Positions 1 through 34,560 of a stretch of 64,000 nt of DNA are shown here, piece by piece. Position numbers and translations under genes: made by a program. Below the pieces are notes generated by a model. That model saw nothing but the letters and a program-made list of their open reading frames with translations, was not told the DNA's origin and did no database searches. Within the stretch, counting starts at the first letter, position 1; each line of letters begins with the position of its first letter. The stretch is from Hemileia vastatrix. Taxonomy: Eukaryota; Basidiomycota; Pucciniomycetes; Pucciniales; Zaghouaniaceae. The stretch lies in NCBI GenBank assembly GCA_030280995.1, contig JASXTE010000003.1:50958974-51022973 (forward strand). Reading direction: 5' to 3'.

Positions 1-449
1 AACAAATTAAATAAGTTATAATACCCTTATAACATTTATTATTTTTTACATAACATTTTAGAAATACAATTCAACAATTTAAATCACACTTCATATAGGG
101 TATCTTTAGAAAGTTCTTCATCTCTGGGACTTGATTATTGCTGTCTCATATAAATTTAAATTATTATAAAAACATAAAAGTCAATCTTTTCAGATCTTTC
201 ACTGGTACACCTTAATTGTTGTTATCAGTATTTCTTTTATCAACAGCCACTTTCTTTAAATCTCAATAAGCGTTAAATATTTTAGAGTTTCATTATTTTT
301 ATCAATCAAATCTAAGTAGATTGGTTAGCTTAGTGATTTAGAACACCCATTTTGTTATTTTAATTGGAAGGACGGGGTTTTCAGCTAAATCCACATATCT
401 CCTCCGGATTCTGCTTACAGCAAGGCGACTGTAAGAGTTTACCTTACCA
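1..449 (+). repeat. 5' LTR of element A, 3' portion
   Basis: This segment aligns base for base with 11618-12066. The shared block ends in TTACCA, the expected CA terminus, four bases before the primer binding site. Differences from the 3' LTR cluster near 115-130 and 300-310. The transcription start and polyadenylation signals of the element should lie in or just upstream of this block, but I cannot place them. Confidence 0.92.
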
Positions 450-453
450 TAGT

Positions 454-470
454 TGGCGCCCAACGTGGGG
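454..470 (+). other. Primer binding site, tRNA-Lys type
   Basis: TGGCGCCCAACGTGGGG begins four bases after the LTR end. From memory this equals the classical primer site for the 3' end of eukaryotic tRNA-Lys(CUU), known from retroviruses as Lys1,2. Minus-strand DNA synthesis would start here. The old relative at 16938 has the same site with two CpG transitions. Confidence 0.85.
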
Positions 471-520
471 TTTGATTTCTCTAGCTTTCTTTAAAGACTT
501 ACTTGGATCAAGAACGTTAT

Positions 521-587
521 TAGCCTGCAAGAGGCTTATTTTCTGGAACTCTAATTGGATTTTTGTTATTGGCCTGCAAGAGGCTTG
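521..587 (+). repeat. Two leader mini-hairpins (duplicated unit)
   Basis: In the untranslated leader, AGCCTgcaagAGGCT (about 522-536) and GCCTgcaagAGGC (about 572-584) each form a 4-5 bp stem with a 5-base loop, within a roughly 50-bp direct duplication. They resemble the hairpin heads of the motif repeated later in the element (3493, 5632, 8732 and on), but lack the TAAACTGG tail. Confidence 0.55.
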
Positions 588-627
588 TTATTTTATCGAT
601 TGTTAACGCTTTTCCTTACTTATTGGG

Positions 628-3237
628 ATGTCTTCTTCTGCTGTTGCTTCTGGATCTTCTAACCCTTTTACTCCCTCAGTTAGAATTGTTTCTTGGGATG
701 GCCCAAAGTTTGATGGGGAGGAGGTTAAATGGTTCATTAGCAGGTATGAAGCTGCTGCTGCTGTTGATGGTGCTTCTCATGTGGATATGGTGAAGCAAGT
801 TAGATTTTTTATTGCTGATAGGGAGGTGGAAAAAGAGGTTATTTCTATGCAGGCATTCAAGGACAAGGATTGGGTTAAGCTTTCTAAAGCTATGGTTGAT
901 AGATGGGGTGTTAGGTTTACTATGATGGACCTCAATAAAATCGTTGGAGACTGGCAAGCAAAAGGTGGTGTTTCTTCTATGGCTGACTTCAAAAAGCTCT
1001 GTGTTCAGTTTGATGAAGTGGTGGAATATCTCATACTGGTGGACGAGTTAGTGCATGAGAACCAAGAAAAAGATTTGTTTTGGACAGCATGTAGCAGGGA
1101 TATTTGTATGGACGTCTTGAAGGATCTTTCAAGAAAAGATTTGATGAAGGAACTGCCTAATGGTGAGCAGAAACTGCCCGCTCTGGAGGTTATCAAGGAC
1201 AACATTCAAGCCCATCTAAAGTTATTGGCGTTGGACAAATATCAAGAGTCATGCACTCAATATGTTAGCAAGGTTAGCAAAGTTTTGGCCAAAAACAATG
1301 ATATTATGGTCAAAGCCCAGGAGGCCAAGAAGGCTCAAATGGGATTACCTGCTGCTAAAGTTGAGGGAAATGTAGATAATAAGATGGTCGATCATTTGTC
1401 CGATTTAACTAAACAGTTAAAAATATTTGTTCAAGAAACCCAGAAGGCCAACAAGGTCCCAATCGCTTCTTCGTCGACGTCGACCTCTTATCAGTCCAGA
1501 GGGTATGAACGTCGAAATTATAATGGCAATAATAATGGTAACCGCTTCCCAGGCAATGGGAGAAATGGTGGGAATGGTGGTAGTAGTTATAGAGGTGGCT
1601 ACGATGAGCCAAAGGTGTGCTCCTATTGTAATAGGAGGGGGCACAGAGCAACAGTTTGTTTTGCTCTTGATAAGGATATGGATGCTGGGCGAGTTTTATT
1701 TGATGGTAAAGTTTATAAATTTCCTGATGGTTCGTTCATCAAGCCCAGTGATGGACAGTCTCCTTCTGATTTGGTCAGAAGAAGTTTAACGGCTGAAAGG
1801 AGAGCCAGATTTGAAGAGGTGACTGATGAAGATGTTAATTCCAAGAGTGGCAAAAATGGTAATGGTAATGGTGGTAAAGCTGACAAGGGTAAGGAGAAAG
1901 AGGTCAGTAAAGCCACATTTTCTACTTCTTTTGGTGGTTTAGAGCTGGCAACGGTTGCCCAGGTGGAGGGTAGCTGTATGGCTGGCGAATACGATGTTAA
2001 TGCTGCTAGAAGAGCAGCCGCTACTAAGGCAAAAAGTAGCATTCAGAGCCAATTGAGGGCTAATCCTGGCAAGGCCAATAACAAAGTGAACCCTTACTCT
2101 AAGGACAAGAATTCTAGTGCTCAAACTTCCGCCAACAAATTGAACCCTTACTCTCAGGACGAATTATATAAAATGCAGAAGGGGATTGCTGATATGGGGC
2201 CCCCTAGTTATGGCAAGTTTGATTTAAATGGTGAGCCTATGCCAGAGGATGATTCGGATTCTGAGGAGGACGTACCGTTGGTGTCTCTACCCAGACCAAG
2301 TTTTAGCGGTCCCATCCCAATGGAGGGTGTAAGAAGGACTAGCAATGGATCAGGATTAGTGCAAGAAGCTGGTGACGGAGTTAGGGTTATAGAAAGTGAA
2401 GATGTTATAATGGGGGGTGAAGATGGCTCGGTTGGACCTCAAGAGGTACCCAGGGCCAAGGTTGTTAAATCAAAGGTCCAGTATGAGCGGCCAGTAGTTT
2501 CTGGTCAAGCTAATGCGATGGACGCAGTTTTGAATAGGGTGAATCAACTGCAGATTCCCTTATCTTTGGGGGAGTTATTTATGATTAGTCCGGCGCTTGC
2601 TGAAAAGAAAAAGAAGCATTTGACGAGGTGTCGGGTTTCCACTGGAGAGGTGGAATATATTTGTGAAAATGCTGAAAAGTTTGGTGAAGATGTAGATACA
2701 CATTTTTCCGCTCCCCTGGGTTACCTGGTGGTAACTCTTAATGGTAAAGAAGTAAAGGCCTTGGTCGATTCAGGGTCTCAAATTAATTTAATTTCATTGG
2801 AGCAAGCAACAAGTATAGGCTTGCCAATTAAAAGTGGAACTGGGGGAAACCTCAGAGGCATTGGAGGGCATGCAACCAAGCTGATGGGTACAGCTGAGCA
2901 TGTCAGGTTAGGCATTGGTGGATCTGTTGGTAAGGTTCACTTTTATGTGGCCAGAGGAGCAGTCAAAACTGTTCTTGGTGGTCCTTTTTTGATGGATTTT
3001 GAGGCCAGGATAGGGTATCAAGGTGTCATGGGGATTAGTTTGGAGATCACTGGTGAAGATATGCGGAGGTTACATATGCGGTTAGCGCCTCCTGGAGTTG
3101 AAAGTTGGGAAATACGGCCAGGGATTACTACTCTGTGCCAGTGTTGTGTTTGCACCAAGAAGAGGCATAAAAAACGGACGGCTTCTGGTGAATTATGTTT
3201 GTTGGAAAAAGATGGATGCCCTCATTTTTTGGGGTAG
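628..3237 (+). CDS. gag: Gag-protease polyprotein of Ty3 element A
   Basis: This 869-residue ORF makes the virion structural protein and, at its end, the retroviral-type aspartic protease. The N-terminal third has the helical capsid pattern of Ty3 Gag proteins (an FDGEEVKWF stretch near residue 28). A CCHC zinc knuckle, C-X2-C-X4-H-X4-C, lies near residues 331-344 after a glycine/asparagine-rich stretch. A low-complexity, charged linker follows. The protease active site, LVDSGSQINLIS, is near residue 712, with a GIGG-type flap region after it. The ATG at 628 is the first long-ORF start after the leader. The ORF is intact, which fits a young copy. It ends two codons after a run of six T, and the -1 frame then continues into Pol. 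A degenerate homologue lies at 17041-19438. Confidence 0.9.
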   Translation: MSSSAVASGSSNPFTPSVRIVSWDGPKFDGEEVKWFISRYEAAAAVDGASHVDMVKQVRFFIADREVEKEVISMQAFKDKDWVKLSKAMVDRWGVRFTMMDLNKIVGDWQAKGGVSSMADFKKLCVQFDEVVEYLILVDELVHENQEKDLFWTACSRDICMDVLKDLSRKDLMKELPNGEQKLPALEVIKDNIQAHLKLLALDKYQESCTQYVSKVSKVLAKNNDIMVKAQEAKKAQMGLPAAKVEGNVDNKMVDHLSDLTKQLKIFVQETQKANKVPIASSSTSTSYQSRGYERRNYNGNNNGNRFPGNGRNGGNGGSSYRGGYDEPKVCSYCNRRGHRATVCFALDKDMDAGRVLFDGKVYKFPDGSFIKPSDGQSPSDLVRRSLTAERRARFEEVTDEDVNSKSGKNGNGNGGKADKGKEKEVSKATFSTSFGGLELATVAQVEGSCMAGEYDVNAARRAAATKAKSSIQSQLRANPGKANNKVNPYSKDKNSSAQTSANKLNPYSQDELYKMQKGIADMGPPSYGKFDLNGEPMPEDDSDSEEDVPLVSLPRPSFSGPIPMEGVRRTSNGSGLVQEAGDGVRVIESEDVIMGGEDGSVGPQEVPRAKVVKSKVQYERPVVSGQANAMDAVLNRVNQLQIPLSLGELFMISPALAEKKKKHLTRCRVSTGEVEYICENAEKFGEDVDTHFSAPLGYLVVTLNGKEVKALVDSGSQINLISLEQATSIGLPIKSGTGGNLRGIGGHATKLMGTAEHVRLGIGGSVGKVHFYVARGAVKTVLGGPFLMDFEARIGYQGVMGISLEITGEDMRRLHMRLAPPGVESWEIRPGITTLCQCCVCTKKRHKKRTASGELCLLEKDGCPHFLG
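3225..3231 (+). promoter_or_regulatory. Probable -1 ribosomal frameshift site at gag/pol junction
   Basis: The heptamer T TTT TTG fits the X XXY YYZ slippery rule in the gag frame. Only one codon (GGG) separates it from the gag stop at 3235. A slip of -1 enters the frame that holds Pol (positions divisible by three). The old copy has T TTT TTA at the same alignment position, also one codon before its stop. I did not identify a convincing downstream pseudoknot. Confidence 0.75.
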
Positions 3238-3959
3238 CAGGGGCTGATCACTCTAATGTTGTAATCTCTCCTCAGGATGAGATCCCGGATTGCAATAGGT
3301 CAGCTCACTTGGAGATAATTCAAGTGGATTCTCAATTATTTTCTGTTAATATTACTTTGGAGTGCAAATAGGTTATGGACTTTTCTATATGTTTATTGGA
3401 TTTACCCTGTTTTTCTATAAAATTTAAAAATGGTGAAAAAGGCAAAATGGGCCAAATTAGGTTGGATAAAAATTGGAAGGGTATGTTTCCGGGCCTCCAG
3501 CAAGAGGTTAAACTGCAATTATCTCCTTCTATTTTGGACCTCCAGCAAGAGGGTAAACTGCAAAAATCTTATCTAAATCCGATTAAAAATCTCAGTATAA
3601 TTAAAACTCAAAAAAATAATTTTTGTGAAAATTCAATTCCGGTCCTGCAGCAAGAGGTTAAACTGCCGACTTTCTTTACAGGTGATTTACTGTTGGATAA
3701 GCGAAGCAAAGGTGTTGGAAAATCTGTTTATAAATTAGACGAGGGAAAGGAGAAAAGGGTAAAATTTAAAAATGAAATAAAATATTTTTCTAATTTTTCT
3801 TATTCCAATTCTGACGATGAAGAAGATTCATTTGATGAAAGTTTTAATGGCAATGTTTTACGTCAAGTTTATTTAGATGTGGATGCAGCCAAATATAAGA
3901 AGGTAGCAAATAAAGTTTGACCTATTAATGAACCGCTACCTGTTGAATTAAATCCACCT
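3232..3959 (+). pseudogene. pol: Pol N-terminal linker in the -1 frame (two in-frame stops)
   Basis: After a -1 slip at 3225 the frame stays open to a TAG at 3369, continues as a 181-codon ORF (3375-3920), meets a TGA at 3918 and runs on into the reverse transcriptase ORF. No known domain is visible. The segment is lysine-rich and carries three copies of an L-Q-Q-E-V/G-K-L peptide at about 3493, 3537 and 3643, which are translations of the hairpin motif. The old copy has a Tyr codon where A has TAG, and AGG where A has TGA. So both stops look like lesions of a once-open frame. The TGA sits in a TTGA context, as expected from CGA by a TpCpG transition. Confidence 0.65.
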
Positions 3960-6374
3960 TTGAGAAGACCAAGGTTATCAAGAGATCCTTATGAAATTCC
4001 CTTGGTAAAGAATCTGCCTGAATTTTCTGAGACGTCAAGAATCACTTTTGAGAGACTGGGTGTTGTTAATTTTGGACCTGATGGTTGGTTGTCTGGAGAA
4101 GAGAAGAAGTTGTTGTTGGATGTGATGGTCAAGCGAGAGAAGGCCATTGCTTTTGTAGAAGAGGAGAGGGGTGTGTTGAAGCATTCCTATGGGGAGCCTT
4201 ACAAGATTCCTGTGGTATGTCATGAACCGTGGCAGCAGAAACCGATTCCTATTCCGGCTGCATTAAAAGAAGCCTATATTGAAGTTGTCAGAGAACGGAT
4301 ACGCACTGGACTGTATGAGCAATCAACATCAAGTTATTCTAGTCCTGTATTTTGTATCAAGAAACCGAATGGAAAGCTTAGAGTTGTTCATGATCTTAGG
4401 GAATTAAATAGGGTTACAATAAACGATGCTGGGATACCACCTAGTGCTGAGGAGTTTGTTGAAGCGTTTTCAGGGAGAGTGTGTTATGGTTTGGGAGATA
4501 TTATGGGTGGATATGATGAGAGAGAGTTACATCCAGACTCAAGGCCTCTCACTACATTCGATACGCCACTTGGACGTTTACAGTTAACAAGATTACCACA
4601 AGGAGCAACAAATTCGGTTGCAGTTTATCAATCTCAGATGGCTTGGATCCTTCAAGATGAAATTCCACAATATGCTGGAATCTTTATAGATGATGGAGGA
4701 ATTAAGGGACCAACAACCGACTATGATAACCAGGTGTTGGAAGAGAATCGCGGGATACGCAAATTCATTTGGGAGTTTGCAATTACTTTAGAAAGAATCT
4801 TGTTTCGAATTGAAGAGGCTGGTTTAACTATTTCAGGTTCAAAATTTTCCTGTTGTGTGCCAGCCTTAGAAATATTAGGCCATGTGGTATGTAGAGAGGG
4901 TAGGATTATGTCCAAGAAGAAAGTTAACAAAATTCAGTCCTGGCCAAGACCCAAGAATACGACCGAAGTTAGAGGGTTTTTAGGCGTTTGTGTATATGTT
5001 AGAATGTTTATTAAGGACTTTTCTTCATTGGCAGCTCCATTGAGACGGTTAACGAGAAAGGATGCAGACTGGGAGTGGGATGAAGAGTGTGAGAAGGCGT
5101 TTGTGAAGTTGAAGGAGGTTGTAGGGAAGGATTTAGTCCTGCACAAGTTGGATTATGGAAAAGAAGCTGGCAGAATTTATTTAGCAGTTGATTCAAGTGA
5201 GGTTGCAGCTGGGGCGGTTTTGTCTCAGATGGATAAAGCTGGTTACATCAGGCCAGTTAGGTATGAATCTGTAGTATTTACTGACGTCGAATCAAGATAT
5301 TCTCAACCAAAATTGGAATTATGTGGTGTGGCAAAAATACTGAAAAAACTTCAGCATATTTTGTGGGGGCAACATTTTGAGTTGCAAGTGGATGCGAAAT
5401 TGTTAATCCAGATGATTAATTCCCCAAGTTTACCAAACGCACCCATGACGAGATGGGTAGCTTTTATTCAACATTTTTCGTTCGATTTAGTTCATAAGCC
5501 TGGTAAAACTTTTACTATGCCAGATGGTTTATCAAGGAGACCACCCACTGAAGAAGATTCAGACTCAGAAGAGTTCGATGAAGATATACCTATTATCAAA
5601 GCCAGCACTAAAGGAGCTGAAGACTTTCCATACCTCCCCCATGAGGTTAAACTGGCAGGACTATTGTGTTTAGATTATAGTGATGATGACCTCCACCAAG
5701 AGGATAAACTGGAAAATAGTTTTTATGTTAATAAAGGTGTTGAAAAAGGTGTAGATAAATTGGGCAGAGAGGAGTTAGAAGAAGATGTGGTGTATGAAGA
5801 GGAAGATGGATTGGTAGTGTGGGATAGTAGTAAATTAAGGAATGGTGTATATGTTGGAGAATTAGAGAATTTAAATAAAAGGGTGGATAAAGAGAAAGAG
5901 GTATTTTCAAATACCGTTTTGGAAGAATCCAAAGGTTCAGAAGAAAAACGTCGACATAGCTTGATTAAAGGCTTATTTAGGGGTCAACGATTATTGGCTC
6001 ATTCATGTGCAGGTGATATTGGTGATAGAGAAGTCCCTATTGATGTTATATTAATAGATTTTCAAGATGAAGTCTGGGGTCAGACTGGTTTTTATTTTTT
6101 GTTAGTCAAATATTGGTTGACTTTAGAGAGGCCAGAAGATTGTGAAGACGATGAATGGGTGGCTATCAAGAGGAATTCATCTACGTTTTACCTATCTGGT
6201 CGACGTTTAATGAGGAGAAGGTATCCAAATCCTCAAGTAGTTATAACTCAAGAGAAGGGGCAAGAATTAGTTTTGAAATCACTGCATGAAGATCTCGGGC
6301 ATAGAGGCGTTGGAGAAACGTTTAGAAGAATTTCTGATCAATTTTGGTGGCCTGGCATGAAGATGGCTGTTTAA
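3960..6374 (+). CDS. pol: Reverse transcriptase, RNase H and integrase zinc domain of element A
   Basis: This 804-residue stretch copies element RNA into DNA. Reverse transcriptase motifs run in order: the template-grip region with a GKLRVVHDLRELN stretch, LPQGATNS, and the catalytic box as FIDD (YXDD family) at about 4685-4697. The thumb and connection follow (ILGHVV, RGFLG). RNase H begins near 5190 with LAVDSS, and PDGLSRRP marks its end near 5520. A charged linker carries two more hairpin-motif copies (5632 and 5688). The integrase HHCC zinc domain starts near 6280 (LHEDLGHRG, WWPGM) and is cut by TAA at 6372-6374. The old copy has TAG at the same codon. The frame has no separate start of its own, so it is read as a Gag-Pol fusion. 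Confidence 0.88.
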   Translation: MRRPRLSRDPYEIPLVKNLPEFSETSRITFERLGVVNFGPDGWLSGEEKKLLLDVMVKREKAIAFVEEERGVLKHSYGEPYKIPVVCHEPWQQKPIPIPAALKEAYIEVVRERIRTGLYEQSTSSYSSPVFCIKKPNGKLRVVHDLRELNRVTINDAGIPPSAEEFVEAFSGRVCYGLGDIMGGYDERELHPDSRPLTTFDTPLGRLQLTRLPQGATNSVAVYQSQMAWILQDEIPQYAGIFIDDGGIKGPTTDYDNQVLEENRGIRKFIWEFAITLERILFRIEEAGLTISGSKFSCCVPALEILGHVVCREGRIMSKKKVNKIQSWPRPKNTTEVRGFLGVCVYVRMFIKDFSSLAAPLRRLTRKDADWEWDEECEKAFVKLKEVVGKDLVLHKLDYGKEAGRIYLAVDSSEVAAGAVLSQMDKAGYIRPVRYESVVFTDVESRYSQPKLELCGVAKILKKLQHILWGQHFELQVDAKLLIQMINSPSLPNAPMTRWVAFIQHFSFDLVHKPGKTFTMPDGLSRRPPTEEDSDSEEFDEDIPIIKASTKGAEDFPYLPHEVKLAGLLCLDYSDDDLHQEDKLENSFYVNKGVEKGVDKLGREELEEDVVYEEEDGLVVWDSSKLRNGVYVGELENLNKRVDKEKEVFSNTVLEESKGSEEKRRHSLIKGLFRGQRLLAHSCAGDIGDREVPIDVILIDFQDEVWGQTGFYFLLVKYWLTLERPEDCEDDEWVAIKRNSSTFYLSGRRLMRRRYPNPQVVITQEKGQELVLKSLHEDLGHRGVGETFRRISDQFWWPGMKMAV

Positions 6375-7346
6375 AAGTGGGTTCAGTCATGCGAAGAATG
6401 TCAAAGACGAAGTTATTTAAGGCCAAAAGAACCTGGACGTGCGACCGGTGAATATACGCTCTTTGGGAAAGTTAGTTTAGATGCCGTTCATATAAAAGAG
6501 GGACGGTATAAATATTTAATTGTGGCCAGAGATGATTTATCTGGTTTGGTAGAGGCAGCGCCTCTTATTAATTTAACTGCCAAAAATGTGGCAGAATTTT
6601 TTTTGAATAATTGGGTATATAGGTATGGGGTGATGAAGTTGGTAACGATAGATGGAGGTCCTGAATTTGGGACAGAGTTTAAAGAGGCCGTATTGAAAGT
6701 TGGATCAAAGGTTAGGGTAGCAACCCCATATTATCCTGAAGCTGAAGGCATGGTTGAAAGAGGGCATCAAGTTATTAAGGATGCTTTAGTTAAAATGTGT
6801 GGGACAAGTGCCAAAAAGTGGATGCACTATTTACCTTTAGTTTTATTTGCTGATCGAATCACTGCCAAAAGGACTACCGGATTTTCACCTTATGAACTTG
6901 TTTTTGGAAAGAAAGCAGTTTTACCGGTTGATTTAGAAGCTGAATCATATCTTGGATTTGACTGGGACACGGTCAAAACTACTGAAGAATTATTGTGTGC
7001 AAGAATGATGCAGCTAGAAAAGAAAGAAGAATATTTAGAAAAGGCATATTCGCCGATGATGAAGATCCGAAATCAATCAGTTAGATATTGGGATGAGCGG
7101 TTGGCACATTGATTAAGGAAACCTTTGAACCCAGGTGATATGGTCTTGGTGTATAATAGGAGTTTGGAAAGCCAGTGGGGAAAGATGTTTGCAGATAGGT
7201 GGAATGGACCATATAAAATCAAGGAGCAAGTTTCCGGCGGTTCATATGTGCTAGAAGAGTTGGATGGAGTAGTATTAAAGAAGAGGGTATCAGCCGATCA
7301 AGTGAAACGGTTCTATCCTAGAGGCACCAGGAGTGCCGAAGTCTAA
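6375..7346 (+). pseudogene. pol: Integrase core and C-terminal domain of element A (in-frame stops)
   Basis: The same frame continues after TAA at 6372. The cysteine pair of the HHCC zinc domain appears in SCEEC. The DDE triad is visible: Asp in SLDAVH (near 6480), Asp in TIDGG (near 6650) and Glu in EAEGMVERG (near 6745). A TGA at 7110-7112 breaks the frame. The old copy has CGA-type Arg there (LAHRLRNP at about 32783), so the ancestral codon was very likely CGA, changed in a TCG context. The C-terminal domain with WNGPYKIKEQ follows and ends at 7346. It would insert element DNA into chromosomes. I see no chromodomain. Confidence 0.82.
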
Positions 7347-7630
7347 CTCTGAAATGAGGATAAACTACAATTTTAACGACTTTTATTAAATTTATAACTC
7401 CAAAATGAGGATAAACTACAATTTTAATGACTTTTATTAAATTTATAACTCCGAAATGAGGATAAACTACAATTTTAATGACTTTTATTAAATTTATAAC
7501 TCCGAAATGAGGATAAACTACAATTTTAATGACATTTATCAAATTTTATTAACCTCCGCAATGAGGATAAAATATGATATCTACGAAATTTTATGGATTC
7601 CTCCGCAACGAGGATAAACTATCTTCTTTT
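7347..7630 (+). repeat. 51-bp tandem array (four units) plus two decayed units
   Basis: The block CTCCGAAATGAGGATAAACT recurs with exact 51-bp spacing at about 7348, 7399, 7450 and 7501. Two looser units at about 7553 and 7601 read CCTCcgcaacGAGG. Each unit holds the mini-hairpin head (CTC/GAG or CCTC/GAGG) and the TAAACT tail seen elsewhere in the element. The array begins directly after the pol stop. Confidence 0.9.
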
Positions 7631-8700
7631 TTTTATCAAAAAATACTTTACTATTGTTACACTGTATATGGTTGACGAAACTATGATGAAACTTAACGAA
7701 ATTCAAGAAGACCTTCTTTGAAATTTTCAAAAACTTAAAATTCTTAAAATATGGGTGAAGATAGTGTTTGAAAACTTTTTAAAATTTATTGGAAGAAGTG
7801 TTCACAGGGGAACCTTCTTAATTTAATATTGGCAAGTGTGGGGGTAATTGATGGGCTGGCTGCTCTATACACAATTACCCCATAATGTTCGTTTCCAAAA
7901 TTTTCCCTGTTTCTAGTTGAATCCTGGCTTTGTCTTTTAATTTTAGGAAGTCCACTAAGACTATAAACTGGAACAAATCAAGAGACACCGCTCTCAACGC
8001 TGGATTCAAGATTTTTTTTTATTTTATTTTTTTTTGATTTTTTTTATGTTAGATTGTGATTTCTTTTCTTTAATATATATTATGAATTATTGTAAAGGTG
8101 ATGCTCACTGGTGGTCTCTAATCATTTTTATAAATTGGAGGGAGCCCACCCAGTGATCATCATTATAAAAATTATCTTCTAAAAACTTTCATTTATTTTC
8201 TTTTCTTTTCAATTTCTCAAAATTGTGTAACCACATCAAGTTGCACTTGGATGTGGGTATGATGTCGAGGGTATGGCTCATCAAATGGCCGGGGGGCATC
8301 TTTTAAAATTTTAATTTTGATAATTTTTTTATTATTACTTTTTTTATCTTTCTTTTCACATTCATTTATCTTTCTTTAAAATTAAATTTTAACTTTTATT
8401 TCAAAACTATCTTTTCTAAAATCTTTTATTTTAAATTAAAAAAAAATTAAAATTAAAAAAAAAAATAAATAATAATAATAATAAAAATAAAAATAAAAAT
8501 AAAATAAAAATAAAATAAATAATAATTAAAAAAAAAAATAATAATAATAATAAAATAAAAATTAAAAATAAAATTAAAAATAAAATTAATCAATTAAATC
8601 AAAATTATTATTATATTTCTTAGTTTTATTTTTTTCAGTCTTCATTCTTTTTAGTTTTATTCATTTAGTCTAGACGGGAAACAGGGTCTAGGGGAACTCA
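7631..8700 (+). other. 3' non-coding region with stem-loops shared with the old copy
   Basis: There is no coding frame. Three inverted repeats occur: GGGGGTAATTG paired with CAATTACCCC (7831-7883); CACTGG paired with CCAGTG around a purine tract (8107-8155); and CCACATC paired with GATGTGG (8229-8254). All three occur in the same order in the old copy (33150-34110). A further hairpin-motif copy lies at 7949-7971. From about 8420 to 8600 the sequence is A/T-only simple repeat. Confidence 0.6.
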
Positions 8701-8731
8701 ATACCTATGGGATTTTACTTCAAGACATCTG

Positions 8732-9552
8732 TTAGTCCTCCAAGACTTTAAACTGGCTACTGTTCAAGACGTTCTTTAAGGTTTTTTATACATATTTTCG
8801 AGCTGTTAGTCCTCCAAGACTTTAAACTGGCTACTGTGCAAGACTTTCTTTAAGGTTTTTTATATACATATTTTGGATCTGTTAGCCCTCCAAGACTTTA
8901 AGCTGGCTACTGTTCAAGACGTTCTTTAAGGTTTTTTTTTATACGAATTTTGGAGCTGTTAGTCCTCCAAGACTTTAAACTGGCTAATTTTCAAGACTGT
9001 CATTAAAAATTTTATATTGGAGCTGTTAGTTCTTCAAGACTTTAAACTGAATTTCAAGGATGTTCAAGATTTTATGGATATTCTTGGAGACGGATTTTTT
9101 TGAATTTTTTTTTATCAATCAAATGTTAGGTCCACCAAGACCTTAAACTGGACTGTTATCAAGCTGTTGGGTCCACCATGACCTTAAACTGGATTTCTTA
9201 TCGATCAAATGTTTGGTCCACCATGACTTTAAACTGGTAGTTCATTCATTGTTTAGTCCACTAAGACTTTAAACTGGAAAATTAATATCTGCAAGAAAAT
9301 TCAACATTCATTGGTCCACTATGACATTAAACTGGATTATCAAATTTATTCAATCTTTGGTCAAGCCTAGGCCTTACTTAGGAATTTATCAAGTTATTTA
9401 TGCACCTAAACGATCTTTGGTCCACCAAGACCATAAACTGGCAATCGATTATATGTTTGGTCCACCAAGACTATAAACTGGAATGTCAATCTTGTTTGGA
9501 TAACTCAATTCAATCTTTTAATTTATCACTGTCCACTAAGACTCTAAACTGG
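8732..9552 (+). repeat. Dispersed hairpin-plus-TAAACTGG motif array
   Basis: About 13 copies of a 24-base motif occur, at about 8732, 8807, 8881, 8957, 9026, 9128, 9168, 9214, 9254, 9311, 9417, 9457 and 9529. Each has a short stem around a 6-base loop (ctccaa, caccaa, caccat or cactaa), then TTTAAACTGG or a close variant. Stem pairs vary in step: AGTC/GACT, GGTC/GACC and GTC/GAC. The first four lie in a roughly 75-bp imperfect tandem repeat, and the others are irregularly spaced. There is no coding frame. Confidence 0.88.
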
Positions 9553-10141
9553 TTATTCAATTATTTCTGGAATTGGGTGCTGATAGCTTTAGGAGGTTAA
9601 AATTTTAGGTGGTGATGATGCTAAAGAAAGCATAATGGTTAATTAGGTGAAATTTGTGGCGCTTTAACATGGTCTAAAGTTAATATTATTATTAGAAGCC
9701 TGGCAAAAGTATTTTATGGGTTTGCTGTATAGCAAAGTTTGAAAATTGTGATGAAGGAATCAGAAGTTAGGATGGTAGTTGGATTTTAGGGAATGATTTT
9801 TTTTAGTGCCTCATAGTTAGGCCATTTTTTTTTGGTGTGAAGCTTGGAGGACCTTATGGCAAGATTGGAATCATAGAATTCGGCTCAGTGGGGGGCCCTA
9901 TGAGGTTGGAATCAGGAGTATTCGGCTCATAGGAAGATCCACTCTCTCAATGCTGTGACAAGAAGGAAGACTGGTATATGGGAGTCTGAAGGGATTCAAA
10001 CCTTGCTCTCAGTAGTGGAATCATCACAAGATTTATATTATTTTATTTTATGTTATATCAAGCCAGAGAAGAAAGAAAACATCATTTATGTTGAAAGTTT
10101 AAGAAGACCAAGCAAAAACAAAATTTTATCAAGTTATAATG
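9553..10141. other. Non-coding stretch of element A, nothing recognised
   Basis: No protein frame or known element is visible. A small imperfect duplication (GGAATCATAGAATTCGGCTC against GGAATCAGGAGTATTCGGCT) lies at about 9868 and 9908. Confidence 0.5.
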
Positions 10142-10835
10142 TTATAAAAGATAATTTCTTTGAAATTGTTCAACATCATTATCAAAGCTTTGCATTAAAA
10201 TTCTTCTTTTCATGAGGTCTTCATGGTTATTAGCTGGAGTTTCTTGAAAATAGGCCAGCATTTTTCGTTTCAACTCATTAGTAAAGTCGAGAAAAAGATA
10301 GCGATGAAAATTTGGGTAATGATTGATATAGTCCGTCTTCACTTTACCAACATCATCAGTGTTGGTTATTTCGACAGCTAGAAGTTCAAATATGTTATTA
10401 AGTCATAGGTTTAGTCAATTTTGTTTAAATGTTTTTTTTTAGTAAGATAAATAGGGTCTTACATTTAGAGCCAGGAAACATAGTCTCAGCAAAGTTAGTT
10501 GGGGGTACTGGTGTTATAGGATTAGGATCTTGTGAAGGCAAAATTAGGCCGGGATCCGCTGATGAAGATTGAACTTTTGAAGCTGTTTTTGATCTTATTC
10601 GTTTTAAGAAGACAGGAATTTTGGATCGCTTTTTAGAAGTTGAGGGATCAGGGAGAGCTGCTGGTCCTAAATATACGTTTGTTTTAGAAGGAACTATTGG
10701 CCAGTTGCATTTGACTTTTTTCACACGGCATAAGTCGCAAGCTGTCCTGCCAGGAAGATTAGGGTTGGAAATTAAACAAGGTACCTGGTATCGAGCGCAG
10801 AGTTCACATGGAGCGACAAGTTCTTTGGAAGACAT
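10142..10835 (-). CDS. Antisense spliced gene with C6 zinc-cluster motif inside element A
   Basis: This gene reads opposite to gag-pol, between pol and the 3' LTR. Exon 1 runs 10835-10463 and exon 2 runs 10377-10142, joined across an 85-base intron with GTAAG donor and CTAG acceptor. The phases fit (373 + 236 nt, 202 residues). Near the N terminus the cysteines are C10-X2-C13-X6-C20-X12-C33-X2-C36-X6-C43, with basic residues in CRVKKVKC. That matches the fungal Zn2Cys6 binuclear-cluster spacing of DNA-binding transcription factors. A Ser/Pro-rich linker and a short helical C-terminal part follow. The usual middle homology domain is absent, so function is inferred only from the cluster. An accessory regulator carried by the transposon is one reading; a captured fragment is another. 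Confidence 0.62.
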
Positions 10836-10946
10836 ATTGATGAAGATGAATTTTATAGTTGATTAAAGGGATGGTGGTTGAAGGTTAAAGATGAATATTG
10901 TGTTCGACCACTTATGCAAAGTTTTAAGAATGGGGACATTCTCAAT

Positions 10947-10957
10947 TGGAGGGAGGA
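10947..10957 (+). other. Polypurine tract of element A
   Basis: The purine run GGAGGGAGGA directly precedes the LTR start TGTGGTAGCC, as expected for the primer of plus-strand DNA synthesis. The same tract, in the longer context CTCAATTGGAGGGAGGA, precedes the LTR-B at 12226. A second such tract (TTGGAGGGAG) lies inside the 3' region near 8137. Confidence 0.85.
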
Positions 10958-12066
10958 TGTGGTAGCCTAAAGTTTAGTATGGCACCTAAGTACGTAAATG
11001 GAGTTATTACGGCGTGCAAGATTGGCGTTATTATTTTTTATATAAGGGTTTTATTTAATTTATTGGAGTTTAAAATATGAAGAAATTGGTCACAAGCGAA
11101 TGCCTACACCAATACAATTTATTTTACGGAGAAAACTTATTTTTACGGTCTGAAAAATTTATAAGTATCAATTCAAGTCACTCAAGAACCTTGGGAAATT
11201 TTCCCAGAATTTTTACTATTTTTCTTATATTTTTAAATGAATTTTAAAGTTTTATAGAAATATTTACGTTTTCAAAAATTACTTAACTTTGATGAATTTT
11301 CACGGGGTAATTAGTGCTGCGCAGACTACGAAAATTAGTTTGGTATGTAAAGGGGAAGTAGCTCTATTATGTGTAATTTTTTTAGATTTTTTATTATAGT
11401 TTTAAGGTTCTAATTGAGTCTGGAAGTCCGGACGGACTCCGCTTTGACTCCATACGGACTCCGTACGGGCTCCAGATTGACTCTGGAAGAGCTCTGGAGG
11501 GGAAAACTTAGGCACGTGACTAGGAATACTTAAGCGCTTCTCAAACTCGAAATTGAGAGGGGGGGACACATCATACAGCTTAATCATTAACCACCACGGT
11601 CTCATTTTTTATTACTCAACAAATTAAATAAGTTATAATACCCTTATAACATTTATTATTTTTTACATAACATTTTAGAAATACAATTCAACAATTTAAA
11701 TCACACTTCATATAGGGTATCTTTAGAAAGGTCTTCATTGCTGGGACTTGATTATTGCTGTCTCATATAAATTTAAATTATTATAAAAACATAAAAGTCA
11801 ATCTTTTCAGATCTTTCACTGGTACACCTTAATTGTTGTTATCAGTATTTCTTTTATCAACAGCCACTTTCTTTAAATCTCAATAAGCGTTAAATATTTT
11901 AGAGTTTCATTATTTTTATCGATCAGATCTAAGTAGATTGGTTAGCTTAGTGATTTAGAACACCCATTTTGTTATTTTAATTGGAAGGACGGGGTTTTCA
12001 GCTAAATCCACATATCTCCTCCGGATTCTGCTTACAGCAAGGCGACTGTAAGAGTTTACCTTACCA
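10958..12066 (+). repeat. 3' LTR of element A
   Basis: This 1109-bp LTR starts TGTGGTAGCC after the polypurine tract and ends TTACCA. Its last 449 bases match the window start. A GC-richer patch at about 11415-11500 repeats ACGGACTCCG twice within several GACTCC/GGACTC words. It is a plausible promoter or enhancer region but unproven. The target duplication cannot be tested because the 5' flank is outside the window. Confidence 0.92.
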
Positions 12067-12225
12067 TAACGTTCTGTATGGATGAACAGGTGGTGTCATG
12101 GCGCAGATTAAATTATTGTTGATGCAGTATTGGCAGGGGCCCATTTCAGAGGCAGATTTGGGAAGTAGGTTAAACATGGTGGTTGGATGAAGAAAGAATT
12201 CAGACATTCTCAATTGGAGGGAGGA
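12067..12225 (+). mobile_element. 3' internal remnant of an LTR-B element with polypurine tract
   Basis: Element A's LTR ends here and a different sequence begins. Its last 17 bases, CTCAATTGGAGGGAGGA, equal the polypurine-tract context of element A and lead straight into an LTR start. So this is the last piece of an LTR-B family internal region, apparently cut by the insertion of A. Confidence 0.65.
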
Positions 12226-13315
12226 TGTGGTCTTCCAACATTGGCAGGGGCCTTTGTTGTGTGATTTGGCGCTGTTTTTGCATGTCTTAATTGAAATCTG
12301 TTAAGGAATTTGGTATTTTTCTGGTTTTATTCCGTGGATATTGGGTCTGCAGGTATGTGGGTACTATCATTGGATAGCCCTGGTGTTTTTCTATATTTTA
12401 TGTCTTGAAGACATTTTTCATATTCTGAGTTTTTAGGGGTCATTTCCTCATTTTTCATTTATAAAAGATTGCTGTTTAATTTTGTTTTTTGTGTTTTTTA
12501 TAGGCTAACCTTAAGTCTTAGGGTTAAGTTCTTAGTACCATTGGATAGAGCTAATTTTTCTCTATATTTCATGTCTCAATGTTGTTATAGTGAAATTCCG
12601 TGTTTTAAAGGTTTTAGTAGTTGTAGCTAATTTTTCTAAGTAGATTAGTGGTTTTCATTGGTTTTCTGGCTTCAGGGAGGCCGGGCCGCTTCAGGCGGCA
12701 TCTCCGACATTGGGCCGCCCGCCCGCCTCTGTTTTAGGAGGTTGGGGAGCGCTCCAGGAGGGTTTTAATGCAATTTGGCAGGTACAGGCGCCAAATTTGT
12801 GGGTGCGCATGGGCTCTTAGTGGTCTGTGTGTACATAGTGAATAAGACAGTTTGGGGAAACCTTAATCATCATACAACCATCCGGAGGTGATCTCATTGT
12901 TCCTCACTCAGTTCTCACTGTTTTCTGGCCACAATTGGCTGTGTTTGTTGCAAGTGAGTTCTTCATTTAAATTAACTTTGGCAACTGTTTTCTCTGTTTT
13001 AGTCTTTCAAGCTATAGCAAGTATTATTGCTGTCTCTGGTGTGGATTTGCAGCCTACATCAAGTATCTTTGCTGTCTCTGGTGTGGACTTTGTTCTACAT
13101 TTCAGTTCTTTGGTCTGGTAGTCTATCTGGTGACTACTTTCTTGGCTCATCAAGCAGTCAAGTGTGTTAAAAAGGGGCTTTAGCAAAACAGGAACCAACT
13201 TACTTTAGCAAGTAAATCTCACTCTATTTTTCTAAAGGGACAGGGGATTTTCTCTCTGGTTTTTCTCCTACTCCATTGGTCAAGGCCTATAGCTAGTACT
13301 ATAGGATTGTCTACA
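12226..13315 (+). repeat. LTR-B, plus orientation
   Basis: It begins TGTGGTCTTCC and ends TTGTCTACA (1090 bp). Reverse-complement copies lie at 14691-15838 and, more diverged, at 35498-36581. The last 100 bp resemble the LTR end of the old Ty3 copy (16840-16933). A polypurine tract precedes it, so it is the 3' LTR of its element. Confidence 0.88.
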
Positions 13316-13833
13316 AAGGACCCGCCTGAGGTAACTGATGCTGATTTTGAGACAGGTAGTCCCACTGAGTGTTTAACCAGTCCCGCTGCCACTTGGACAC
13401 TTCCACCTTTTCTTGGGAGTGGGGAGCCAATTGTTGTTGATCCCTGGGAGGAAGAGGTTTCTTCTTCTCTTGAAGAAAGGTATCTATCCTTCTCACCTTT
13501 TCTTCAAGAGCATCTACCCTTGCCTTAAGTCTCAAGTTTTCTGTCCTTAGCTCCTTTATGTAAGTTGACAGATTCTTTACCTGTTGAGGCAATGGCATCT
13601 TTTTTATCCTGAAACCTTTTGGAAGTTCTTCTGGTGGGTTTATCATAGGCTTCTGATCCTGAGTTGTGTCTACTAGGATTTCTACTTCTTCCATCTCTAC
13701 ATCCTGTTTGGGGAAAGGATTTATTAATCTGAGAAGTTCTTCTTGTTAAAGTAGAACTTACAGAAGTAGGCTCATCATAATCAATCAAGTCTAGTTCCTC
13801 TTCACGTGCAGCAGAACCACTTTTGTCAGTCAT
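13316..13833 (-). pseudogene. Coiled-coil protein ORF next to LTR-B, one frameshift
   Basis: The start at 13833 opens a 102-codon frame (MTDKSGSAAREEELDLIDYD). The coding signal then moves to another frame, with a 127-codon ORF (13694-13311). One indel near 13715, in a CCCCAAA run, would join them. The second part has a clear leucine-heptad coiled coil (around LRTENLRLKARVDALEEKV) and a proline/glutamine tail ending at the LTR-B border. It is the first ORF downstream of the minus-oriented LTR at 14691, where Gag would sit. However, I see no CCHC knuckle or protease, so I cannot assign it. It could be a short non-autonomous element's protein. Confidence 0.5.
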
Positions 13834-16480: not shown

Positions 16481-16933
16481 TTCAAGGGATTCCAGATCTC
16501 TCACTGAGGTAATTTAATTGTTTTTAAGTTTTTTTATTATAATTTTATTTTTAAATTCTATTCCCATTGACTTATACTATTGAGCACGGTGTTAGGGAGT
16601 AAAATTGTAGGGAACATTTTATTTACACTAATTAATTATACTACTTATTGTACTTAACTAGTTAATTGTAAGTAATACTTAAGTAGATAATTAATTATTA
16701 GTAAGAAGAAGGGGTGTGGCTTCAACTCAGTAAAATAATTAATTATTTTACCGGTTAAGTCTAGTAGCCTGGCTGACAAGAAGTGTGTTGGAAGGGATAT
16801 AGTAACAGTCTCTAATTTTCTGTAACAAATAAATCTCACCTGGTATTTTTCAAAGGGAAAGGGGTTTTTGTCTCCAGTTTTACTCCAACTCCCTTGGTCA
16901 AGGCCTATAGCCAGTACTCTAGGATTGTCTACA
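16481..16933 (+). repeat. 5' LTR end of the old Ty3 copy
   Basis: The last 100 bases resemble the LTR-B end and finish TTGTCTACA, four bases before a primer site. The stretch near 16495 (CCAGATCTCTCACTGAGG) resembles the LTR of element A. The LTR start is not identifiable. Confidence 0.6.
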
Positions 16934-16937
16934 TTTG

Positions 16938-28856: not shown

Positions 28857-31800
28857 GGAGATGTACCAAGAGGATTTTCAACTTTTTTTTAATGTTTCTC
28901 TTCTCTGCAAGTATTCTTTATTTTTTATCAAGTGTCTGTTCTCTTTCAAGATTCTCAATTAATTTTAATTCAAGTTCAAAAAAAAAATTGTTTATATATC
29001 TTTATTGAAAAATATGTGGAAAAGCTGTGGAGTGGTGAGATTGGGGTCTTAAATTAATTCCTCCCAATTGTGCACGGCTAGGGTTTCTTCTACACCTTTC
29101 AAAACCATTACCTTGGCCATGTCTGTGAGCATTGGGGAAACCCCTGGTTATTTTTGTGGGATGGAAGAAAACTCAAGAAAATAAAATATAAATTTCAAGA
29201 TAACTGAAGAAAATCAAGAAAAAAATCTTTAGATAATCAAGAATGAAGACAAGAATTATTTTTGTGAAGATCATCATGATCAATTTTTGGACCTCCATCA
29301 TGAGGCTAAACTGCACAAATGTTTGAAGAAAGTAGATCAGAAAGATAAATATTTGGACCTCCTGCATGATTATAAACTGCAAAATTTTAGAAGATGTGAT
29401 TCAGAAGATGAATCAAGATTTGAAGATTTAGAAGATGGAAGTGAAATTGAAGATGTGGGATTGCGGAAAAGTTTTGGAGTGGTGTGATTGGGGAATAAAA
29501 GTAAGTCCTCCCAATTGCACACCACTAGGTTTTCTTCTGCACCTTTCAAAAACATTTTGTTGGCCACACATGTGAGAAGTGGGGAAACCCTTGGTTTTTG
29601 TTCCAGGTCTGGTGGTGAAGATGTCCTGAAGATCCCTCAAGTTGAAGGTGGTGCTGCAAATTAAAAGAAGGTAGCATAGAATATTAGGCCTGTAAATGAG
29701 CCTGTGCCTGCAGGTTTGAATCCTCCTTTGAAGATACCTCCATTGTCAAGAGATCCGTACTGCACTCCTCTGGTGAAGAATCCACCTTATTTTGTGGAAA
29801 CTGCTCAGGTGACTGTGACAAGGTTGAAAGTTATTAATTTTGGTCCTGAAGGATAGTTGTCTGATAATGAAAATAAGTTTTTGTTGAATATTATTGTGCT
29901 CAGGGAGAAAGTGGTGGCATTTGTGGAAGAGGAAATGGGTGTGTTGAAACACTCTTATGGGGAACCTTACTTGATTCCTGTGGTCTGACATGAACCTTGG
30001 AAAATCAAACCTATTCCAATTACAGCTGCTATTAGAGATGATTTTGTAGAGATTTTTACGAAAAGATTCAGGAATGGGTTATATGAACAATCAACATCTA
30101 GTTACTCAAGTCTGGTTCTCTGTGTAAAAAAGCAGAATGAGAAGCTGAGGGTTGTACATGATCTTAGAGCCTTGAATAGAGTCACTATCAAGGTTGCGGG
30201 GATGCCGACAAGTGCAGAGGACTTTGTGTAAGCTTTTGCTGGTAGGGTGTGTTATGGTTTGAGACATATTATGGGTGGTTATGATGAAAGGGAACTTCAC
30301 ACGAATTCACAGCCGCTTACAACGTTTGAGACTCCTCTGGGAAGATTTTAGATCACTAGCTTGCCTCAAGGAGCAACTAATTCAGTAGCAGTATATCAAG
30401 CACCAATTGCTTGCATTTTACAGGATGATGTTCCTACTCATGCTGGTATTTTTATTGATGATTGTAGAATAAAAAGACCATCCACTGATTATGGGAATGA
30501 GCTGCTGAAGGAGAATCCAGGTATAAGAAGGTTTGATTGGAAGTATGCAATTAATCTAGAGAGTATTTTTTAGGATTGAAGAGGCTGTGTTGACCATTTC
30601 TGGGTCAAAATTTTGTTGTTGTGTTCCTTCTGTGGAAATTCTGGATAATATGGTATGTAAAAGGGGAAGGATTATGGCAAAGAAAAAATTTAAGAAAATT
30701 CAGTCATGGCCAACACTTAAAAATACTACTGAAGTCACGGGATTTTTGGAGGTTTGTGTGTATTTCACAATTTTTATTAATGATTTTTTTGGTGGCTTCA
30801 CCTTTGAGGAAGTTGACTAGGAAAGAGGCAGAATGGGTGTGGACTGAAGAGTGTGAAGAGGATTTTCAGAAGTTAAAGAAGGTGGTAAGTGAAGATATTA
30901 TTCTTCACAAGCTGGATTATGGAGTGGGCCCTGGAAAGATTTTTCTGGCATTGGACTCAAGTTATATTGCTGCTGTTGCTGTTTTGTCTCGGGAAGATAA
31001 AACTGGGAGAGTCAGGCCAGTAAGGTATGAGTCAGCGGTATTTAATGAGGTTGAATCTAGATATTCTCAACCTAAGTCGGAATTGTGTGGTGGGGAAAAA
31101 ATTTAGAAGAAGCTGCAGACTGTTTTGTGGGGGCAGCATTTTGAGCTGCAGGTGGATGCAAAATCTCTGGTTCATATGATTAATACACCTAGTCTTCCAA
31201 ACGCTCTAATGCCTAGGTGGGTGGAATTTATTCAGCATTTTTCTTTTGACCTGGTACACAAACCTGGAAAAACTTTTACAATGCCAGATGGATTATCAAG
31301 GAGACCACCCACAGATGAAGATTCAGACTCTGAATAATTTGATGAAGATTTTTGAGTGGATAGGGCCAGCACAAAGGGTGCTGGAGATTTTTCTCTCCTT
31401 TCCCATGATGCTAAACTGGATGATTTTTTTCTCCTCCCCCATTAGGCTAAACTGGATGATCGTTTTCTCCTCCCTCAAGAGGTTAAACTGGCTGGTTCTG
31501 ATCTTGATTCTGGTGATCAGGATGTTTTTGTTGATGAAGATGGAGTTGTTGTTTGGGACAGCTCAAAACTGGAAAAGGGTGTTTTTGTTAGTGAACTGGA
31601 TTCTCACAAGGTTCAGTGGAAAGAGAAGGACATGCCAAAATTTAAGGATTGGTGTCCTGGGTGGGCTGCTCAATTGGCTCATGTTCATACTGGTGATTTT
31701 GATGACAGAATTGTACCCTTGGATGTGGTGTTGTTGGATTTTGAAGATGAGACCTGGGGTCAGACTGGGTTTTATTTATTATGGTTAAATATCTGTTAAA

Positions 31801-33023: not shown

Positions 33024-34560
33024 ATTCACAATGATGATTAACTGAGGACCATTCTTTAATTTGGACTTTGGTGATGCTGTGCATCTGTTTTTTTAGAAAC
33101 TTTTTTTTGATAGAAGGTACCCATGGGTGGGGCTTCTTGATTTTATTTTGGAAATTGTGGGGGTAAATGATGGGCTGGCTGCTCTATCAACATTGACCTC
33201 AGATTTTCTGTTTCAAACCCCTTCTCTTTATTTGGTTGAACCCTAGTATTGGTTTCTTTTCACAGTTTTTAGTGCTCTATGACTTTAAACTGAAAACTCT
33301 TTTGGTCTTCAAGTGCTGGAATCTTAACTCTTACTGGTTTTGGTTTAATGTGTTAGATTTTGTGTTTTTGTTAGAAGGTACCCAGGGGGGGCTTCTAGAT
33401 ATTTTTTTGGCAAGTGTGGGGGTAACTGATGAGCTGGCTACTCTGTAGAGCAGTTACCCCATAATGTCTGTTTCAAGTTTTTTTTTGTCCTAGTTACATC
33501 CTAGTTCTGGTTTTTCTATGCAGGTTTCAAGTCCACTATGACTTTAAACTGGCTTACTGGCTTGGGACCTGCTTCTTTGGTCTATTTGGACTAGTGGTGG
33601 ATCACTGGTGGTTTCTCATCATTTTTACTTATTGGAGGGAGCCCACCCAGTGATCATTTTCTTGGACTGGACTTTCTATGGAGCCAAAATTTGTCTTTTT
33701 CTTTTCTTTAAATTTTGTGTCTATGGTTGTGTTTGATGGTAGTTTTGGATTATTTTCTTTTTTTCTCTTTTTTTTCTTTTAATTTTTTTATGGGGGTTAT
33801 TAGGATATAAAGAGGGAAAAATCACAAAATTATATTATATGGTGTCACCACATCATGGTTACATGGATGTGGGCAAGCATTGGTGTGGAAAGGCTCATCA
33901 ATTGGCTGGGCAATGTATTTTCTTTTTTATCTCTATCTCATTTTTTATTATTTTCTTTGATTTCTATTTATATAATAATTTCTTTATTTAAATTATTTTT
34001 CTTGATTTATTTTTTTTCTCAATTCACTTAAAAATTCTTTAAAGGTGTATACACATCAAGGTACACTTGGATGTGGGTAAAGTATCACGGGATCAGCTCA
34101 TCAATTGGCTGGGGGAGACCATTTTTAACTATAGTTTATCTCATCTTATTATTATTATTATTCATTTCATTTTAATTTTTTTCATATCTCATATTTTTGG
34201 TTAATTTTGTTTGTTATTTTCAAGTTTTTTTAGTATGTTAGTAGTTTAAAATAAAAAATAAATTTAAATTTAAAATAAAAATAAAAATAAAAATAAAAAT
34301 AAAAATAAAAATAAAAATAAAAATAAAAATAAAAATAAAAATAAAAATAAAAATAAAAATAAAAATAAAAATAAAAATAAAAATAAAAATAAAAATAAAA
34401 ATAAAAATAAAAATAAAAATAAAAATAAAAATAAAAATAAAAATAAAAATAAAAATAAAAATAAAAATAAAAATAATAATAAAAATAATTAAAAAAAATA
34501 AAATAAAGTAAAAATAAAAAAAATTTATATATATATCTATTAATTATTATTTTTATCTCT
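33024..34560 (+). other. 3' region of the old Ty3 copy with conserved stem-loops and simple repeat
   Basis: The GGGGGTAA...TTACCCC block of element A occurs twice (about 33160 and 33417). The CACTGGTGG...CCCACCCAGTG hairpin with its purine tract is at 33600-33652. The CCACATC/GATGTGG hairpin occurs near 33848 and, in variant form, near 34050. Hairpin-motif copies lie at 33270 and 33529. From 34257 to 34480 is a pure (AAAAAT)n microsatellite of over 35 units. No 3' LTR in plus orientation follows. Confidence 0.7.

What the first reader, a model, noticed from the sequence alone, without database searches (positions are those of the whole stretch)
3493..9552. A mini-hairpin followed by a TAAACTGG tail is repeated about 25 times in element A, with paired stem changes
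Seen directly: 4-5 bp stem, 6-base loop, then WTAAACTGG. Stems differ between copies but stay paired: CCTC/GAGG (3493, 3537, 5632, 5688, 7601), AGTC/GACT (8732, 9254), GGTC/GACC (9128, 9168, 9417), CTC/GAG (7348 array). Copies lie both in pol, always in one frame, and in 3 kb of non-coding DNA, so a peptide cannot be the only reason for conservation. Inference: an RNA element bound by Gag (packaging, dimerisation) or by a host RNA-binding protein. I know of no described retrotransposon signal of this form.
Basis: partly seen in the sequence, partly recalled or inferred. Interest (0 to 1): 0.9.

Follow-up and report, generated by a model that had tools for sequence, protein, structure and literature searches.

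The report
Repeated mini-hairpin in rust retrotransposons
A 22-letter signal that can fold into a tiny RNA hairpin is repeated about 25 times in one jumping gene of a rust fungus and about 110,000 times in its genome, and it is kept even where protein coding would let it drift, so it probably acts as a many-copy tag on the element's RNA.

Summary
Element A is a Ty3-type LTR retrotransposon of a rust fungus, almost surely Hemileia vastatrix. It has 25 sense-strand copies of a 22-nt unit, XYTCCNNNAWGAY'X'NTAAACTG: five in pol linkers, twenty from the end of pol through the 3' UTR. Shuffles give 0.04. The genome holds 109,914 exact core matches (control 11). In a 200-kb random sample, copies occur only with one clade of elements; both subclades have it, so it predates their split.

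The constraint is on nucleotides: in 16 coding copies from five diverged elements synonymous choices are frozen (CTC 12 of 15 against 5.6% background, CTG 16 of 16 against 12.3%) while neighbouring amino acids vary. The stem is supported but modestly: 92% of pair cells pair against 72% shuffled, from few independent events; a genome-wide wobble test showed no asymmetry, and flanks do not favour folding. Larger hairpins share the UTR. A pol-less family (at least 40 places) keeps the motif array in five of five copies read, which points to a cis-acting signal.

Best explanation: a dispersed, multivalent RNA recognition signal, perhaps for packaging. The binder is unproven.

The parts
1..451 (+). 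part of the 5' LTR of element A (the window seems to start inside the LTR)
   Evidence: 98.9% identical to 11618-12068
10958..12068 (+). 3' LTR of element A; 5' border inferred from GGAGGGAGGA/TG at 10948, a recalled PPT-LTR form
   Evidence: 11618-12068 repeats 1-451; L009 3877-5016 matches 10949-12068 at 93%; stretch located; border is inference
454..470 (+). primer binding site-like TGGCGCCCAACGTGGGG
   Evidence: regex; also in L009, L028 and, with one change, L019
628..3237 (+). gag-protease ORF (869 aa); CX2CX4HX4C knuckle at 1618-1659
   Evidence: Pfam aspartyl protease at residues 702-784; knuckle at residue 331
3494..3515 (+). motif copy, PR-RT linker (CCTC/GAGG)
3539..3560 (+). motif copy, PR-RT linker (CCTC/GAGG)
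3644..3665 (+). motif copy, PR-RT linker (CCTG/GAGG, one broken pair)
3960..6374 (+). pol ORF: RT, RNase H, start of integrase
   Evidence: Pfam RVT_1, RT_RNaseH, Integrase_H2C2
5633..5654 (+). motif copy, RNase H-integrase linker
5690..5711 (+). motif copy, RNase H-integrase linker
7346..7621 (+). six motif copies starting at the end of pol (7346, 7397, 7448, 7499, 7553, 7600), tail TAAACTAY, mostly in a 51-bp array
7840..7882 (+). larger conserved hairpin (block I) in the 3' UTR
7949..7970 (+). motif copy (AGTC/GACT) 67 nt after block I
8105..8156 (+). larger conserved hairpin (block II)
8231..8256 (+). larger conserved hairpin (block III)
8734..9049 (+). five motif copies (8734, 8808, 8884, 8961, 9028), AGTC/GACT type, period about 76
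9129..9551 (+). eight motif copies (9129, 9170, 9215, 9255, 9313, 9419, 9459, 9530), mostly GGTC/GACN, uneven spacing 40-106
29292..29379 (+). two motif copies in the PR-RT linker of the diverged element B
31397..31490 (+). three motif copies in the RNase H-integrase linker of element B, period 36
33271..33551 (+). two motif copies in the 3' UTR of element B, each after a block I hairpin (33159, 33418)

Best explanation
A dispersed, multi-copy, cis-acting RNA signal of one clade of rust Ty3 retrotransposons. Each 22-nt copy in the sense transcript forms a short hairpin (two variable outer pairs, two nearly fixed inner pairs, loop CNNNAW) with a single-stranded NUAAACUG tail. The copies sit where the RNA tolerates them: linkers between pol domains, ORF ends, the 3' UTR. 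Many weak sites together are bound by an RNA-binding protein, most likely the element's own Gag (zinc knuckle), marking the genomic RNA for concentration and packaging into particles. Shown: the repeat, its strand, its age, nucleotide-level constraint, its presence in a pol-less amplified family. Supported but not proven: the hairpin. Inferred: protein binding, Gag as the binder, packaging as the purpose.
For: 25 sense copies, 0 antisense, in A. 109,914 core matches in the genome against 11 for the reversed pattern. The 5 of 20 random 10-kb loci with copies all carry pieces of this clade; loci whose RT pieces are only 21-24% identical have none. Frozen synonymous codons with varying amino acids. 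Motif less diverse than spacer: 0.027 v 0.059 in 9 A-family UTR stretches, permutation p 0.033; 0.068 v 0.114 in 5 pol-less copies, no permutation. Pairing 92.2% v 71.7% shuffled, covariation 0.488 v 0.170. Pair 1 by hand-sorted site: A-U 15, G-C 5, G.U 3, A.C 0. Pol-less family with the array. 16 of 16 block I hairpins looked at are followed by a motif 67-75 nt on. In yeast Ty3, packaging depends on UTRs or POL, sites not defined (PMC4974528 and PMC11381356, passages).
Against: No wobble asymmetry at pair 2: 469 G.U v 497 A.C, though decay of dead copies may swamp it; the mirror test in the C-G class was asked and never answered. A-U at pair 2 is nearly absent (15), so covariation there may be one ancient event. 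8 of 25 copies in A have a broken pair. Natural flanks do not favour the stem (0.36 v 0.39, p 0.54, 78 copies). Two gag-like ORFs (L009, L019) lack the knuckle yet sit with the motif. The same review (PMC4974528) reports nt 429-4979 of yeast Ty3 dispensable for retrotransposition when proteins are given in trans. No binding data.
Confidence: 0.42

Rival explanations
1. RNA signal bound by a host protein and used for nuclear export, stability, localisation or translation control of the long transcript, not for packaging.
For: Same sense-strand, nucleotide-level data. Copies lie around ORF ends and in a structured 3' UTR. Elements with knuckle-less gag-like ORFs keep it.
Against: Found only with one element clade in the random sample; a host signal might be expected in host genes too, but only 200 kb were sampled at random.
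Confidence: 0.22
2. DNA-level binding site (insulator, silencer or transcription factor array) read in double-stranded DNA.
For: Short fixed core TCCNNNANGANNNTAAACTG resembles a multi-finger DNA site (impression, not tested); arrays of zinc-finger sites are known in Drosophila gypsy (recalled). Wobble test shows no strand preference.
Against: Outer pairs change together, which a DNA reader does not need; copies lie on the sense strand; none before 3494 in A, that is none in the LTR part and leader read.
Confidence: 0.15
3. No function: an old repeat unit that spreads by slippage or template switching inside the element and is copied with it.
For: Tandem arrays of periods 36, 41, 51, 76 and 45/105 with variable copy number.
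Against: Copies with unlike flanks share the 22-nt unit; synonymous positions are frozen across diverged elements; lower diversity than spacers.
Confidence: 0.13
4. Target or decoy for small RNAs of about 22 nt (host silencing or escape from it).
For: Length and copy number.
Against: Many positions are free and the outer stem changes in pairs, unlike a perfect target; no small-RNA data.
Confidence: 0.05
5. Peptide motif LxxExKL (cleavage or docking site) in the polyprotein.
For: 10 of 11 coding copies checked share one frame; the exception is in the decayed copy L023. One public relative (P0120) has LRNESKL in the stretch before its RT.
Against: Frozen synonymous codons, variable residues 2 and 5; 14 UTR copies in A beyond the array after pol; the linker has no protein homologue at E up to 10.
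Confidence: 0.03

Closest known systems
Dispersed packaging signals of single-stranded RNA viruses (MS2, satellite tobacco necrosis virus, hepatitis B pregenome; PMC6281560, passages read)
   Same: Many short stem-loops with a shared recognition element spread over the genome.
   Different: Here the shared part is also a 3' tail; copies are near-identical and often in tandem; the carrier is a Ty3 retrotransposon; no protein binding shown.
Cis-acting regions of yeast Ty1 and Ty3 (PMC4974528, PMC11381356, passages read)
   Same: LTR retrotransposons; Ty3 RNA packaging depends on UTRs or POL.
   Different: No repeated motif appears in the passages read; minimal Ty3 donors keep only the two RNA ends.
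Drosophila gypsy Su(Hw) site array (recalled)
   Same: Array of about a dozen short sites in an LTR retrotransposon.
   Different: DNA-binding sites in the 5' part; here sense-strand copies in pol and 3' UTR with pair-wise changes.
Retroviral psi and Gag-binding hairpins (recalled)
   Same: Small hairpins bound by a zinc-knuckle protein.
   Different: Few copies at the 5' end; different loops.

Membership tests
Ty3/gypsy LTR retrotransposon (element A) | LTRs, PBS, order PR-RT-RNaseH-IN, zinc knuckle | tested here: met
   RT tree among Pucciniales elements
Dispersed packaging signals | many dispersed copies of one stem-loop motif on the sense RNA | tested here: met
Dispersed packaging signals | stem kept paired with free sequence | tested here: inconclusive
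   for (three of five measures); searches give no support
Dispersed packaging signals | specific binding by the coat/Gag protein | not testable with these tools
   no binding data
Dispersed packaging signals | needed for encapsidation | not testable with these tools
   indirect only: pol-less family keeps the array
Zinc-finger DNA insulator array (gypsy type) | location in the 5' transcribed region | tested here: not met
   no copy before 3494
Zinc-finger DNA insulator array (gypsy type) | bound as double-stranded DNA | not testable with these tools
   no binding data
Any Rfam 15 family | covariance model match in window 1-12100 | tested here: not met
   0 matches up to E 1

The most novel reading that the evidence does not exclude
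A retrotransposon clade uses a distributed RNA assembly code: some 25 near-identical hairpin-plus-tail sites spread over pol and 3' UTR that a Gag protein reads cooperatively, and that pol-less relatives keep in order to be carried by the autonomous elements.
Probability: 0.3. Interest if true: 0.88.

Novelty: new variant of a known kind. Interest (0 to 1): 0.72.

Why it matters
Where Gag recognises Ty3-type RNA is not precisely defined even in yeast; the 2024 Ty3 structure paper says so and points to UTRs and POL (PMC11381356, passages). Here is a sharply bounded 22-nt unit in the pol linkers and 3' UTR, in about 110,000 genomic copies with natural variants and a pol-less family as a natural comparison. 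If it is a packaging signal, it would extend the dispersed-packaging-signal idea to LTR retrotransposons and offer a reason why one clade of elements became so abundant in a 748-Mb fungal genome.

Tried and rejected
Peptide-only explanation: rejected on codon data. Chance: rejected. Pairing of the tail to another place in the element: the reverse complement of TAAACTG occurs once in A (4621), so no leader partner was seen. Known RNA family: none in window 1-12100. Relatives outside this genome: a loose peptide pattern was sought in the 120 proteins listed of 206 found; 4 of 120 match, about what I estimate for chance, and one of them (P0120, LRNESKL) does lie in the stretch before RT, so presence in relatives is open; DNA of other rusts could not be searched. 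The linker ORF has no protein homologue. The one IMG/VR pattern match (L029) shows no similarity to the loci then held and reads as chance. Wobble asymmetry at pair 2: not found. Flank folding: no support. Paper searches showed no such motif in their listings; I saw listings with the starts of abstracts, passages of PMC4974528, PMC11381356 and PMC6281560, a term search of PMC12210899 without hits (121), and PMC10652848 in full but for the end of its reference list (33). They cover only the held open-access library.
Full report
What and where. The window lies in a 747.6-Mb genome. One contig is 35,997,290 bases, and the published Hemileia vastatrix Race I assembly has N50 35,997,362 and 747.98 Mb (PMC10652848), so the organism is almost surely the coffee leaf rust; this is inference. 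Element A seems to run from before the window start to 12068: 1-451 and 11618-12068 are 98.9% identical, a primer binding site-like stretch lies at 454, then gag with a CCHC knuckle, protease, RT, RNase H and integrase.

The unit. A weight matrix from 24 seed copies finds 25 copies in A, all on the sense strand, spacings 40 to 1989; 100 dinucleotide shuffles gave a mean of 0.04 hits, at most 1. Identity among copies is high only inside the unit (offsets 2-4, 8, 10-11, 15-20) and 0.24 to 0.55 outside. Of the 25, 14 have four Watson-Crick pairs, 3 need a G.U and 8 have one broken pair.

Genome. The exact core TCCNNNAWGANNNTAAACTG occurs 109,914 times; the reversed pattern 11 times. A CCTC-type pattern with up to 2 mismatches occurs 32,507 times, control 0. 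In 20 random 10-kb stretches of one chromosome, 5 hold copies, 29 in all, and all five hold gag or pol pieces of A's kind (up to 98% identical); stretches whose RT pieces are only 21-24% identical have none. One stretch (L016) has a 52-residue RNase H piece of 65% identity at its edge and no copy. Of 243 hits in the loci then held, 153 lie in a locus with a gag or pol piece: 147 on its strand, 6 not, and these 6 are L019 copies nearest to a different element while L019's own gag-like piece is on their strand; 90 hits had no such piece in their locus.

Age. An RT tree puts A, L023, L030 and B, L028 in one clade (100/99) apart from Puccinia, Austropuccinia and unnamed relatives. Both halves have the motif in the pol linkers and the 3' UTR, so it is older than their split. 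Among 120 listed public relatives 4 match a loose form of the peptide, about chance level by my estimate; one of them, P0120, has it before RT.

Nucleotide-level constraint. In 16 coding copies of five diverged elements codon 1 is CTC in 12 of 15 leucines (background 5.6%), codon 7 CTG in 16 of 16 (12.3%), codon 4 GAG in 13 of 13 glutamates (48%), codon 6 AAA in 16 of 16 (50%), while residues 2 and 5 take five and six different amino acids. Copies are not independent, so the printed p values overstate, but the linkers around them fall outside the blastn matches between A and B. In 9 A-family UTR stretches the motif differs at 2.7% of pairwise sites against 5.9% in spacers (block permutation p 0.033); in five pol-less copies 6.8% against 11.4%, no permutation run.

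The stem. On 93 distinct 23-mers 92.2% of pair cells pair (shuffled 71.7%), covariation 0.488 (shuffled 0.170; best slid version 0.295); but pairs with changes on both sides (2 v 2.2) and further pair types (8 v 8.8) do not exceed the shuffles. Pair 1 occurs as C-G, A-U, G-C, G.U and U.G; pair 2 as G-C, C-G and one U.G; pairs 3 and 4 hardly vary. By distinct UTR site, sorted by hand, pair 1 is A-U 15, G-C 5, G.U 3, A.C 0, G/A 1, U/U 2 (Fisher p 0.0017 on the first four). Among 94 distinct 23-mers G.U cells are 21 and A.C 4 (p 0.0009), but 12 and 4 without the pair-1 G.U (p 0.077). Genome-wide at pair 2: C-G 34,274, C/C 269 (123), G/G 200 (111), G.U 469 (72), A.C 497 (90), A-U 15 (96) of 109,914; the G-C count was not run, nor the mirror wobble test in the C-G class. 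At pair 1 G.U is 5,330 (103) and A.C 263 (97), but most of the 100 listed G.U copies are two fixed sites. So crossed stems are rare, but the two pair-2 states look like one ancient switch, and wobble is not preferred there. If changes were independent about 3 A-U copies would be expected; 15 is an excess that uneven copy age could explain. Predicted folding is weak: mean stem probability 0.36 in natural flanks, 0.39 in shuffled flanks (78 copies of the window, L019, L028 and L030, p 0.54). The hairpin is the favoured reading, not a proven one.

Surroundings. The 3' UTR holds three larger hairpins conserved among A, B, L019 and L038. Block I has 93.8% paired cells on 8 sequences (shuffled 91.8%, 6 of 500 as high) and one pair with three types (C-G, A-U, U-A). 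In eight sources 16 of 16 block I copies are followed by a motif 67-75 nt later.

Pol-less family. L019 has LTR-like sequence shared with L028 and B, a PBS-like stretch at 3925, a gag-like ORF of 465 aa without knuckle, then a motif 2 nt after the stop codon and ten more copies. The 901-nt junction from gag-like ORF to UTR matches 40 scored places (of 1,310 candidates), itself included, the others at 93-96%, nearly all over the full length. Four further copies were read in part: 5, 7, 9 and 9 motif copies in 2.4 kb, block I in all four, no pol piece. Their LTRs, and L019's 3' LTR, were not examined. An element without pol that multiplied with this array points to a cis-acting role, though passive retention is possible.

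Mechanism. Shown: many sense-strand copies under nucleotide-level constraint. Supported: hairpin plus tail in RNA. Inferred: cooperative binding by Gag during assembly, by likeness to dispersed packaging signals (PMC6281560) and because yeast Ty3 packaging depends on UTRs or POL (PMC4974528, PMC11381356); the same review also reports nt 429-4979 of Ty3 dispensable for retrotransposition in trans. The knuckle was found by regex in the gag of A, L030, L028 and L023, not in L031 or the split element B, and not in the gag-like ORFs of L009 and L019, which weakens the knuckle as sole reader unless such elements are served in trans.

Verdict. Real, old, abundant and constrained; RNA structure likely, binder unknown.

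Noticed in passing
window 7840-7882, 8105-8156, 8231-8256: Three larger hairpins conserved among 3' UTRs of this clade; block I is present once in A, twice in B and L038, three times in L019.
   Followed up: partly
L009:5160-6369: Element with A-type LTR and pol in which gag-protease is replaced by a 403-aa gag-like ORF without knuckle; a motif copy lies 2 nt after its stop codon.
   Followed up: partly
L019:3720-7320: Pol-less family (40 scored junction matches of 1,310 candidates) of gag-like ORF plus structured UTR.
   Followed up: yes
window about 16800-34600: Element B appears split by some 9.3 kb inserted between about 19514 and 28854 (seen by comparison with L028).
   Followed up: no
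window 8433-8605 and 34248-34523: A-rich (AAAATA)n stretch at a like place in the 3' UTR of both A and B.
   Followed up: no
window 12226-15838 and 35497-36581: Repeat with long inverted arms (96% identical) and a third, 82% copy elsewhere; looks like a DNA transposon.
   Followed up: no
window 24586-27134: Overlapping long direct repeats at offsets of about 0.6 and 1.2 kb, 77-78% identical.
   Followed up: no
L010:5394-9942: Long tandem array of about 0.6-kb period, about 75% identical, also matching the window near 26-28.5 kb.
   Followed up: no
   Followed up: partly
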